From assembly GCF_014696435.1 (NCBI RefSeq), contig NZ_JACJQG010000016.1:1-64000 (forward strand): a stretch of DNA of 64,000 nt. The letters run 5' to 3'. The translations under genes and the position numbers were made by a program. Under the pieces are notes generated by a model. The model worked only from the letters and a program-made list of their open reading frames with translations. It was not told where the DNA came from and ran no database searches. The DNA is from Calothrix anomala FACHB-343 (GTDB lineage Bacteria; Cyanobacteriota; Cyanobacteriia; Cyanobacteriales; Nostocaceae). The stretch's first letter is position 1; every line of letters starts with the position of its first letter. This document shows positions 20,981-24,153 of this stretch, piece by piece.

Positions 20981-21943
20981 ATGGATGCCTTGCTACATAA
21001 TCCTATAGCAGATATGTACGGGCCGGATTTTCTACTGTTGTATGGCAGTGTTATTATCTTGATCACAATCGTCTGTGGATGGTTTGTACAAGATCCGACA
21101 AAAAATCAATCTTTACCTTTAATTCCCAGTCAACCAGATCCCTATGAAATTGCTTACTTACGTTCGGGTGCGGTAGAAGTTGTAAAAGTAGCGATTTTGA
21201 ATTTAATTCAGAGGGATTATTTACAAGTTTCGGAACAATTAATTAGGCGCACATCGAAAGATAATTTATCTGAGCTACAGCCGATAGAACGTGAGGTTCT
21301 TGCTAGCTTTTCTTCTCATCCTGGAACCAAATCTTTAGAGTCAATAGCCGCAAAAGTGCAGTCTTACTGCCAAATTTACGAAGGGCAGTTAGACAATGAG
21401 CAATTACTATATAATCAACAATGGCAAGCAGCAAATATTCAAGTTGGCTTGATTGCAGCGACAATAATTTTGAGTTTAGGGGCGTATAAACTCTTCATCG
21501 CTTTAGGAAAAGGACGGCATAATGTAGGGTTTCTGATTGTGATGGCTGTCCTGTCAATTATGTTTATTATATGGTTTGCGAGTAGGCGATCGCGTTTAAG
21601 TATTCGCGGTGAAGCCTACCTCAAACAACTGCAACAAACCTTTGCTGAATCGAAAACCAAGGTAAAATATAGCTTACCTTCTGCATTTGACTATAACTTG
21701 GTCGTCGCACTATTTGGTGTGGAAGCATTAGCTGGTACTACCTACGACTCATATTACAAAATCTTCTTTCCCACAAGATTCTCTAGTAGCACTAGCAGAC
21801 AAAACAACTCTAACGGTAGTTCCTGTAGCAGTAGCAGCTGCGGTAGTTCTTGCAGTAGTAGTAGTTCCTGTAGTAGCGGGAGTTCCTGCGGTAGTTCCTG
21901 CGGTGGTGGTTGTGGTGGTTGTGGCGGTGGTTGCGGAGGTTAG
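20981..21943 (+). CDS. TIGR04222-domain membrane protein with nine-cysteine C-terminal tail (candidate modified substrate)
   Basis: 320 aa. The N-terminus NPIADMYGPDFLLLYG, with TM1 (about 17-36), and DPYEIAYLRSGAVEVVKVAI match the TIGR04222 family. TM2 (151-174) and TM3 (181-200) are followed by a conserved cytosolic or external segment, then a low-complexity tail at 268-320 of Ser/Gly/Cys. Cysteines are at 282, 287, 291, 297, 303, 307, 311, 314 and 318, changing from Ser-rich to Gly-rich spacing and ending CGGCGGGCGG. From memory, family members commonly carry such tails and occur near DUF692 genes; DUF692 and partner follow here at 22760-24153. The tail could be enzymatically modified, bind metal or form disulfides. 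GGGAG lies 9 nt before the ATG. Confidence 0.85.
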   Translation: MDALLHNPIADMYGPDFLLLYGSVIILITIVCGWFVQDPTKNQSLPLIPSQPDPYEIAYLRSGAVEVVKVAILNLIQRDYLQVSEQLIRRTSKDNLSELQPIEREVLASFSSHPGTKSLESIAAKVQSYCQIYEGQLDNEQLLYNQQWQAANIQVGLIAATIILSLGAYKLFIALGKGRHNVGFLIVMAVLSIMFIIWFASRRSRLSIRGEAYLKQLQQTFAESKTKVKYSLPSAFDYNLVVALFGVEALAGTTYDSYYKIFFPTRFSSSTSRQNNSNGSSCSSSSCGSSCSSSSSCSSGSSCGSSCGGGCGGCGGGCGG

Positions 21944-21968
21944 CAAGATTTAAGCAAATTGGCGAAAT

Positions 21969-21997
21969 TCCCCTCCCGACTTCGTTAAGGGAGGGGT
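21969..21997. terminator. Strong hairpin after the TIGR04222 gene
   Basis: CCCCTCCC/GGGAGGGG stem with an 11-nt loop, 26 bp after the stop. No T-tract follows on either strand, so it may be a transcript-stabilising or attenuating hairpin rather than a classical terminator. Confidence 0.45.
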
Positions 21998-22233
21998 GCA
22001 TAACGCTGGACGCGACGAAACACCACAATGCAAGCAATTAGATACAATTAAGGTAACAAAAGCTATGTTTCCGTTGATTGTATCAGGGCAAAAACTTGGA
22101 GAAGGTTGCAAAAGATGGTACTAATTATCTCAAGTTAGTCATTGATACTAAATTTTGGCACAACCAGGCATGAAAATCTATCTTTCCTATCCCCAATGCC
22201 CTATACCCAATGCCCATTTTCAAGTTAGAAAAT

Positions 22234-22506
22234 ATGTATATTCAACTTAAACCTGAACACGAGCAATTTATTCAAGCGCAAATGGCAACTGGTAGATATG
22301 AAAATGCGGACGATGTGATTGCCAAAGCTCTAAAACTACTAGAGGAATGGGAAAAAGGCTATCAAGAATGGGAAGAAGAAACCCGTCAAAAAATAGCGAT
22401 TGGACTTGCTCAAATCGAACGTGGAGAAGTGGTTGATGGTGAAGTAGTAATGGCGCGATTAACTGAGAAAATACGAAAAGCGCGTGAGAATCCACTCAAG
22501 ATTTAG
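22234..22506 (+). CDS. ParD-like (CC2985 family) antitoxin, partner toxin decayed
   Basis: 90 aa from ATG at 22234: MYIQLKPEHEQFIQAQMATG, then RYENADDVIAKALKLLEEWE, a ribbon-helix-helix N-terminus as in ParD antitoxins, followed by a charged helix that would wrap a ParE toxin. No intact toxin gene follows; only a ParE-like fragment is seen at 22488-22559. An upstream frame extension to 22210 runs into CCCAATGCCC repeats and is not used. It separates the TIGR04222 gene from the DUF692 gene. Confidence 0.75.
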   Translation: MYIQLKPEHEQFIQAQMATGRYENADDVIAKALKLLEEWEKGYQEWEEETRQKIAIGLAQIERGEVVDGEVVMARLTEKIRKARENPLKI

Positions 22507-22559
22507 AGGAAATTTTAGATTATTTTTTAAGCAAATTAGAAGATCAAAATAGTAGTTAG
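22488..22559 (+). pseudogene. Possible ParE toxin remnant
   Basis: In the frame overlapping the antitoxin's end, STQDLEEILDYFLSKLEDQ is encoded before a stop at 22557. This resembles the N-terminal helix of ParE toxins (…QDLEEIxDYF). Only about 24 codons are open, with an in-frame stop just upstream, so it would be a relic. Confidence 0.35.
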
Positions 22560-22759
22560 CATAATCTCTTCCATAACTCTTTACTTCGTGTTCTTTGCGT
22601 CTTTGTGGTTCGTTTTTCTGAATTTTTACCTAATCTTAGCCACAATTGTGAATACTGAATCGGTATTCTAGGCGTGAAGTAAGGAAACTCGCCCTTACTA
22701 ATGGTTTTATAGCCATTATATACAAAGTTTTGTTGCAATAATCTGTTTTATCTCCGGAA

Positions 22760-23596
22760 ATGATATTATCTCAGCTTCCAACTTTAGGCACGGGGTTAGG
22801 TTTTCGCCAACCATTTAAAAGCGATTTGTTTCTTAACCGCCAGCAAGTAGATTTTCTGGAAATTGTTGCTGAACATTATCTAGATTCACCTTGGCACAAA
22901 CAACAGGAATTAGAACTACTGGCGGCACATTTCCCGATAATTCCCCATGCTATTAATTTATCATTGGGTAGTGCTGAAGGTTTGGATGTAGATTATTTGC
23001 GGAAACTAGCAGCACTAGTAAAACAGCTTAACCCGCCTTGGTGGAGCGAACATATTTGTTTTACTCAAGCTGGTGGGGTGGATATCGGACATTTATCACC
23101 CCTACCTTATACTCAAGAAGCAGTAGAAGTTGTCTGTCGGAATATCGCTGAGGTGCGGCGTTGGATTGATATGCCGTTTATTGTGGAAAATATCACTTAT
23201 ATGGTGACGCTTCCCGGTGCGGAGATGACAGAAGCTCAGTTTTTAGCGGAAATAGTAGAACGCGCTGATTGTGGCTTGCTGTTAGATGTGACAAACCTGC
23301 ATACTAATGCTGTCAATCATGGCTATAACATCGATGATTTTCTCAATCAATTACCTTTAGAACGGATAGTTCAGTTGCATTTTGTCGGCGGACATTGGCA
23401 TGATGGTGTATTGATTGACAGTCATTCTCAATCTACCCCGGTGGAAGTTTGGCAATTGATGGATAAAGTTGTTGCTCAGGTTCCGGTAAAAGGGATTGTA
23501 TTAGAAAGAGATGAAAATTTGCCATTATTTAGCGAATTAGTGGGAGAACTACAACAAGCTAGAGAAATCGGTAGGAGTCATCAGCGATGGGGTTAG
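22760..23596 (+). CDS. DUF692 multinuclear non-heme iron oxidase (MbnB/TglH-like)
   Basis: 278 aa TIM-barrel enzyme. Candidate metal ligands follow the family pattern: H63 (IPHAINLSLG), E97/H98 (WSEHICF), E143 (VENITYM), D176/N179/H181 (LLDVTNLHTNA), H207/H212/D215 (LHFVGGHWHDG), D220/H222 (IDSHS) and E249 (LERDEN). GTGLGFRQPF and FLEIVAEHY are typical N-terminal blocks. Known members use iron clusters and O2 to modify cysteines of ribosomal peptides (methanobactin MbnB, 3-thiaglutamate TglH). Its stop overlaps the next gene by 10 bp. The nearest Cys-rich candidate substrate is the tail of the protein at 20981-21943. Confidence 0.92.
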   Translation: MILSQLPTLGTGLGFRQPFKSDLFLNRQQVDFLEIVAEHYLDSPWHKQQELELLAAHFPIIPHAINLSLGSAEGLDVDYLRKLAALVKQLNPPWWSEHICFTQAGGVDIGHLSPLPYTQEAVEVVCRNIAEVRRWIDMPFIVENITYMVTLPGAEMTEAQFLAEIVERADCGLLLDVTNLHTNAVNHGYNIDDFLNQLPLERIVQLHFVGGHWHDGVLIDSHSQSTPVEVWQLMDKVVAQVPVKGIVLERDENLPLFSELVGELQQAREIGRSHQRWG

Positions 23597-24153
23597 CACA
23601 AACACAGCAAGTTTTAGCCCAACTTTATACTAATTCACAATTGAGACAGCGTTTTTTTGCTAATCCGCAAAGTGTGGGTGCAGAGTTGGGATTAACTGAA
23701 CCACAGATACAGGAATTAGCTGCAATTTCTAGCGAACAGGTAAATATGTTTGCGAATTCTCTCAAGTGGAAACGGTTAGGAGAGGTGCGCGAACTCTTAC
23801 CAGGTACAGCAAAGGTATTGGGGAAAAATTTCAACGATTTATTTTGGCGATATGCGGAAACTTATATCCCCCAGGGTATCAAGAAACATCGCCTAGATGC
23901 GATCGCATTTGCTAATTTCATCCAAACCCAGAAAATTGAGCCGGTTTGGGTAAGGGATTTGCTGCGTTACGAAAAAACCTGGCTGTTAGCTTATGATTCT
24001 CCGCGCTGTTTGCGGGTGTGCTGGTTTCTTTACCCTGTTGATAAGCTGGGAACTACAGAAAAGATATCTCGCCAACTAACTTTAGCAGTTTGGTGGCGGT
24101 TAAACGAGCGATCGCGCTTACATCATACTTTGCGCTGGTGGCCGATTCCTTAG
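23587..24153 (+). CDS. Partner protein of the DUF692 oxidase
   Basis: 188 aa, about the size of MbnC. Starts 10 bp inside the DUF692 gene, so the two are translationally coupled. Residues about 1-45 (VLAQLYTNSQLRQRFFANPQ, then LGLTEPQIQELAAIS) form helices like leader-binding or Nif11-like segments. The middle and end are rich in Trp and Arg (TWLLAYDSPRCLRVCWFLYP, AVWWRLNERSRLHHTLRWW). In DUF692 systems a small partner recognises the substrate and stabilises the enzyme; that role is inferred here from context. I cannot assign it to a named Pfam family. Confidence 0.75.
   Translation: MGLAQTQQVLAQLYTNSQLRQRFFANPQSVGAELGLTEPQIQELAAISSEQVNMFANSLKWKRLGEVRELLPGTAKVLGKNFNDLFWRYAETYIPQGIKKHRLDAIAFANFIQTQKIEPVWVRDLLRYEKTWLLAYDSPRCLRVCWFLYPVDKLGTTEKISRQLTLAVWWRLNERSRLHHTLRWWPIP

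What the first reader, a model, noticed from the sequence alone, without database searches (positions are those of the whole stretch)
20981..24153. Candidate RiPP-like system: cysteine-tailed TIGR04222 membrane protein with a DUF692 iron oxidase and partner
The sequence shows a three-TM protein ending in a 40-residue Ser/Gly tail with nine cysteines, then a DUF692 enzyme with a complete metal-ligand pattern, and a 188-aa gene overlapping it by 10 bp. Established: MbnB and TglH (DUF692) oxidise cysteines of ribosomal peptides with a small partner. Inference: the tail is the substrate, giving a protein anchored in the membrane with a modified, possibly copper- or other metal-binding, C-terminus instead of a free peptide. 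That architecture differs from the classical free-peptide pathways.
Basis: partly seen in the sequence, partly recalled or inferred. Interest (0 to 1): 0.88.

Follow-up and report, generated by a model that had tools for sequence, protein, structure and literature searches.

The report
Cysteine-tailed membrane protein with iron oxidase
Some filamentous cyanobacteria carry a three-gene cassette in which an iron enzyme and its helper protein probably modify the cysteine-rich tail of a membrane protein; others have already proposed this pairing from sequence, and the cyanobacterial version makes it testable.

Summary
In detail: a TIGR04222 membrane protein (T) with nine tail cysteines, an MNIO/DUF692 enzyme (M) with conserved ligand positions, and a 188-aa gene (P) overlapping M by 10 bp. 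The idea that MNIO enzymes modify TIGR04222 Cys tails was published in silico in 2025 (PMC12452194), so it is not new. Added here: (1) among 218 genomes of the window's family, 38 have an intact M of this subfamily; all 38 have a T of one clade, adjacent in 37. (2) 53 of 55 adjacent T copies have at least 4 tail Cys; the two exceptions are truncated. (3) The cassette is absent or decayed as a unit. (4) P is predicted to have a TglI-like fold with an Os1348-like N-domain and a shortened RRE. Against: 16 of 27 classed TIGR04222 proteins from genomes without any MNIO match also have Cys tails, so the tail is not diagnostic. Charge bias weakly favours a cytosolic tail (34 of 40), unlike the published periplasmic reading. 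Chemistry and metal binding are inference. Verdict: a real, probable MNIO-substrate cassette, new member of a published candidate class.

The parts
20981..21943 (+). TIGR04222 membrane protein (T), probable MNIO substrate: three hydrophobic segments and a C-terminal Ser/Gly/Cys tail
   Evidence: (102.1 bits)
21815..21940 (+). Cys-rich tail, residues 279-320, nine Cys; contains the conserved GGGC-GGC-GG motif near its end
   Evidence: sequence, alignment, survey
22210..22506 (+). ParD-type antitoxin ORF between T and M; probably an insertion, not part of the conserved cassette
   Evidence: also present in L098, no hit in L102 and L103 (only these three were checked)
22760..23596 (+). MNIO (DUF692, MbnB_TglH_ChrH) enzyme (M), the only PF05114 match in the genome; closest named model BufB, below its cut-off
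23587..24153 (+). MNIO partner protein (P): Os1348/NHLP-like N-domain, DUF2063-like helical core, three strands read as a shortened RRE

Best explanation
The three genes form a post-translational modification cassette. P and M form a TglHI/BufBC-like complex in the cytosol. They oxidise cysteines in the C-terminal Ser/Gly/Cys tail of the TIGR04222 membrane protein T, most likely to thiooxazole- or thioamide-type groups as BufB-like enzymes do, giving a membrane-tethered tail that can bind a soft metal. Shown by sequence: co-inheritance, gene order, Cys tails kept in the linked T genes, and a predicted TglI-like fold of P. Inferred: that the tail is the substrate, that the chemistry is bufferin-like, that the tail lies in the cytosol, and any metal role.
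Confidence: 0.7

Rival explanations
1. The Cys tail is a general feature of TIGR04222 proteins (metal or disulphide use of unmodified thiols), and M-P modifies a different substrate or a different part of T.
For: 16 of 27 classed TIGR04222 proteins without an MNIO match in the genome have Cys tails, many with a similar Gly-Gly-Cys end; further left-out rows show the same.
Against: No other candidate substrate shared by more than 8 of 37 loci near M (larger neighbours). No cysteine outside the tail is nearly invariant in 33 aligned T. Linked tails differ in make-up: SCS plus SCG contexts 230 of 424 cysteines against 15 of 97, though this could be a clade difference. Cassette genes are lost together.
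Confidence: 0.17
2. The tail is a RiPP core that is modified on T and then cut off and released.
For: Length-variable core and tandem precursor copies resemble RiPP precursors.
Against: By eye, no protease or exporter among the 22 neighbour clusters printed (not run through a family search); a cleavage motif was not searched for.
Confidence: 0.1
3. The tail is low-complexity repeat DNA (NGY codons) drifting without function.
For: Tail length varies widely; Ser before Cys is TCN in 227 of 235 linked cases, which suggests copying of a DNA unit; Cys not more conserved than Ser or Gly.
Against: At least 4 Cys kept in 53 of 55 linked T copies across several paralogue groups; the terminal motif is nearly invariant while identities to the window T run from 40 to 90%.
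Confidence: 0.03

Closest known systems
TIGR04222 proteins with MNIO enzymes and PME-type 2 partners (Antoine et al. 2025, PMC12452194)
   Same: Same three components and same proposed substrate (C-proximal Cys/Ser/Gly tail); short partners probably with truncated RRE are also described there (outline, passages and section 18 seen).
   Different: They report mostly Actinomycetota; 'cyanobacteri' does not occur in the main text (supplements not seen). They predict a periplasmic tail; charge bias here weakly favours the cytosol. They find partner genes missing from many TIGR04222 clusters; here P follows M in all 38 intact cassettes.
TglHI (3-thiaglutamate pathway)
   Different: TglHI acts on a 50-residue carrier peptide (abstracts in the listing); the aligned part ends at residue 219 of 269, so P lacks about the last 50 residues.
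Bufferin pathway BufBC
   Same: M is closest to the BufB model (244.9 bits); Cys-rich substrate.
   Different: Below the BufB cut-off of 310; no bufferin domain in T; P lacks the DUF2063 signature.
Os1348 / NHLP-type RiPP proteins
   Different: Here the domain is fused to an MNIO-partner-like protein; it is below the NF038399 cut-off of 40.

Membership tests
MNIO / MbnB_TglH_ChrH (PF05114) | profile match over the cut-off | tested here: met
   299.6 bits, cut-off 25
MNIO / MbnB_TglH_ChrH (PF05114) | conserved His/Asp/Glu/Asn metal-ligand positions | tested here: met
   invariant in the 21 sequences of A3, on the same letters in the printed alignments to 3bww, 8hci and 7dz9 chains; ligand role recalled
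MNIO / MbnB_TglH_ChrH (PF05114) | oxidises a ribosomal peptide | not testable with these tools
   needs mass spectrometry
BufB bufferin maturase (NF050167) | score over the curated cut-off | tested here: not met
   244.9 bits against 310
TIGR04222 membrane proteins | profile match over the cut-off | tested here: met
   102.1 bits, cut-off 43
TIGR04222 membrane proteins | C-terminal Ser/Gly tail with Cys (common, not universal) | tested here: met
   nine Cys in the window; 53 of 55 linked and 16 of 27 unlinked classed relatives with at least 4
PME-type 1 partner (DUF2063, PF09836) | DUF2063 signature | tested here: not met
   no PF09836 match listed at E up to 1 for window P
PME-type 2 partner (Antoine et al. 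2025) | structural relation to NGO1945 (3dee) without the DUF2063 signature, encoded after the MNIO gene | tested here: met
TglI-type partner | same fold as TglI | tested here: met
TglI-type partner | binds the MNIO enzyme and the substrate leader | not testable with these tools
   no complex prediction available
Os1348 family NHLP clan (NF038399) | score over the curated cut-off | tested here: not met
   26.3 bits for the window, 33.0 the best of the relatives scanned, cut-off 40
Bufferin precursor | DUF2282 or other bufferin domain | tested here: not met
   no such match for T in Pfam or NCBIfam
Bufferin precursor | Sec signal peptide | not tested
   no signal-peptide program was run

The most novel reading that the evidence does not exclude
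An MNIO-partner pair modifies the cytosolic tail of an integral membrane protein that is never released. Because the partner has lost the C-terminal part of its RRE, the substrate's own DUF2207-like soluble domain between TM1 and TM2 supplies the recognition surface in cis. The product would be a permanent membrane-bound, modified metal-binding tail rather than a RiPP natural product.
Probability: 0.15. Interest if true: 0.78.

Novelty: new member of a known kind. Interest (0 to 1): 0.5.

Why it matters
Whether MNIO enzymes act on membrane proteins as well as on free peptides is open; it was raised in 2025 from sequence alone (PMC12452194). The cyanobacterial cassette is compact and strictly co-inherited, with natural null and decayed relatives. 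It occurs in named genomes: the partner hits in Calothrix brevissima NIES-22, Nostoc carneum NIES-2107 and Cylindrospermum sp. NIES-4074 lie on records whose lengths equal those of the contigs of loci L098, L099 and L108 with full T-M-P. That makes the question directly testable. If true, it would widen MNIO chemistry to membrane-tethered protein tails and give a function to part of the large uncharacterised TIGR04222 family.

Tried and rejected
Tail Cys as a marker of MNIO: rejected, because 16 of 27 classed TIGR04222 proteins without MNIO have it. A different modifying enzyme beside the no-MNIO, Cys-tailed TIGR04222 genes: apart from TIGR04222 itself, no cluster shared by more than 6 of the 17 loci examined. 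A hidden small Cys-rich precursor in the cassette: no cluster in more than 8 of 37 loci; the 8-locus one (36-40 aa) was not followed up. Site-wise conservation of Cys: inconclusive to negative (10 ungapped pairs drawn from all T with at least 4 Cys, three of them from the no-MNIO class, one mixing both classes, some not truly homologous position by position). Profile search of P against PDB sequences gave only a weak nitrile hydratase alpha hit (E 0.013). P against a BufC-like protein gave hhalign probability 8.8% in a plausible register. T against PDB sequences gave hits confined to the C-terminal, low-complexity part. The 273-aa relative of P and the BufC-like protein gave no PDB sequence hit. 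Structure of T: could not be obtained, so the recognition-in-cis idea is untested. A first tail listing read several minus-strand loci in the wrong direction and was replaced.

Rows dropped: one search classed all 77 over-cut-off TIGR04222 matches and 6 further ones. Left out there and read later were nine sub-cut-off rows (one is a second piece of the G373 frame; one, G359, is a linked-type fragment at a contig end in a 54%-complete genome without an MNIO match) and three rows of G053; a second piece of the G237 gene was not read. Alignments A1, A2 and A3 use chosen subsets (32, 33 and 21 sequences).

Full report
What is there. The window is part of a 9.24-Mb genome whose nearest named hit by the partner gene is Calothrix brevissima NIES-22 (98% over 188 residues). 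On the + strand lie T, a 320-aa TIGR04222 membrane protein (20981-21943); M, a 278-aa MNIO/DUF692 enzyme (22760-23596); and P, a 188-aa protein (23587-24153) overlapping M by 10 bp. T ends in 42 residues of Ser, Gly and nine Cys. M is the only PF05114 match in the genome. Between T and M is a ParD-type antitoxin ORF, also found in the close relative L098, with no hit in L102 or L103, so it looks like an insertion.

Prior art. Antoine et al. 2025 (PMC12452194) was seen as outline, passages and section 18. They collected more than 3,500 TIGR04222 proteins, noted their Cys/Ser/Gly C-terminal regions and frequent MNIO neighbours, and proposed that subsets are MNIO substrates. They described PME-type 2 partners, many too short for a full RRE. 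They also noted that more than a quarter lack C-proximal Cys and that a third of genomes with TIGR04222 lack MNIO (490 of 1372). Two papers in the library hold the term TIGR04222. Three further searches listed no experiment on this system, as judged from titles and the starts of abstracts only.

Distribution. In 292 genomes drawn from the phylum, 14 had TIGR04222 and 17 had PF05114 matches; the only genomes with both were five of the window's family. In all 218 held genomes of that family, 64 had TIGR04222 (59 over the cut-off) and 49 had PF05114. Of these 49, 38 hold an intact M of the window's type (295-312 bits), four hold only fragments (G374, G420, G473, G474), and seven hold other MNIO types only. 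All 38 hold a T of the linked clade: within 6 kb in 37, and about 94 kb away on the same contig in G470. Thirty-seven fetched loci besides the window contain T, M and P in one stretch, one of them the decayed G374. G420 has an intact T, but its M matches only to about residue 50 in an assembly rated 85% complete, so it may be decay or misassembly.

Tails. 83 T matches were classed: all 77 over the cut-off in the family survey and six from the phylum survey. Adjacent to an MNIO match (fragments in G374 and G420 included), 53 of 55 have at least 4 Cys after the domain. The two without are a truncated second copy in G308 and the truncated G374 gene. In G470 the T has 8. In genomes without an MNIO match, 16 of 27 have at least 4 Cys. 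Rows left out of that count were read: one of three G053 matches, and weak matches in G312, G315, G317, G439 and G360, also end in Gly/Cys tails. A tree puts all 56 linked-type rows in one clade (100/100) and all 27 others outside it, so the association is phylogenetically a single event, maintained since; the tree program warned of long branches. In the linked clade, tandem second and third T copies also keep Cys tails, apart from the G308 copy. Linked tails are richer in Ser (41% against 15%) and in S-C-S or S-C-G contexts (230 of 424 cysteines against 15 of 97); both classes share Gly-Gly-Cys ends. A substitution test on ten ungapped pairs did not show Cys to be more conserved than Ser or Gly (33 of 141, 36 of 264 and 53 of 319 changed). 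That counts against strong site-wise constraint, though several pairs are probably misaligned by repeat turnover.

Unit of loss. In 31 of the 37 linked loci a K+-channel gene lies upstream on the same strand. Ten genomes that I chose among those without the linked cassette all keep that channel gene. In the stretches around it T and M gave no hit in 10 of 10, and P gave a degenerate remnant in one, G307, from the window's own genus. In G374 what looks like one deletion took the T tail and the first 181 residues of M and left P; G473 and G474 keep T and M fragments and gave no P hit in the stretches fetched. This is what a functional unit of three genes would do.

Topology. In 40 linked, Cys-tailed T proteins with exactly three hydrophobic segments (13 others, with four or five, were left out), positive charges favour a cytosolic C-terminus in 34 and the opposite in 6. 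The 15 residues after TM3 carry a mean net charge of +3.1; overall K+R density is 0.131 on the presumed inner and 0.093 on the presumed outer stretches. Of the no-MNIO class only three could be scored (one for, two against). This is weak evidence, but it fits a cytosolic enzyme acting after membrane insertion. It differs from the published periplasmic reading. No structure of T could be obtained (first try, last).

Mechanism and confidence. The best reading (0.7) is that M and P oxidise tail cysteines of T in the cytosol. M's closest named model is BufB (below cut-off), so bufferin-like thiooxazole chemistry and soft-metal binding are the natural guess, but both are inference. The main rival (0.17) is that the Cys tail is a general TIGR04222 feature and M acts elsewhere; the Cys-tailed proteins without MNIO keep it alive. 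I file T under TIGR04222, M under MNIO (not BufB) and P under PME-type 2/TglI-like. The system is a new member of a published candidate class, with moderate interest because it makes an open question testable.

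Noticed in passing
L144 4210-4419, L145 3916-4170, L146 3938-4192, L147 5942-6163, L149 5993-6199: Five genomes of the family carry a different MNIO with a 264-274-aa relative of P and a 68-84-aa peptide with a double-Gly-like leader and a conserved CPxCRSG core: a likely free-peptide MNIO RiPP family (weak leader-type matches).
   Followed up: partly
L148 4220-4492 and L150 4220-4429: Two further MNIO loci (G416, G444) have upstream GG-leader-like peptides ending in CTHNCGIC or containing CWFHCGICDN; G416 also has a 293-aa partner with an Os1348-like N-domain match.
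   Followed up: partly
L158, L160, L166, L173, L174, L176, L177 and others: A second class of cyanobacterial TIGR04222 proteins (frames of about 380-540 aa) has an extra N-terminal domain with a VDxxWHxH-like motif (read by eye), a Cys tail and no MNIO match in the genome.
   Followed up: partly
tails of 53 linked T genes: Ser codons directly before tail Cys are TCN in 227 of 235 cases, directly after Cys AGY in 169 of 169; in no-MNIO tails Ser before Cys is AGY in 15 of 15. Unexplained; perhaps copying of a DNA unit.
   Followed up: no
window 22210-22560: ParD-type antitoxin ORF followed by what reads by eye like a short remnant of a ParE-type frame; between T and M.
   Followed up: partly
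L231 6911-7333: G307, same genus as the window, keeps a degenerate remnant of P (35% identity) directly after the K+-channel gene, with no T or M hit.
   Followed up: yes
L179, L180, L181, L182, L183, L184: Weak, sub-cut-off TIGR04222 matches in G312, G315, G317, G439 (twice) and G360 belong to other proteins that also end in Gly-rich tails with CGGCGG-type ends.
   Followed up: no
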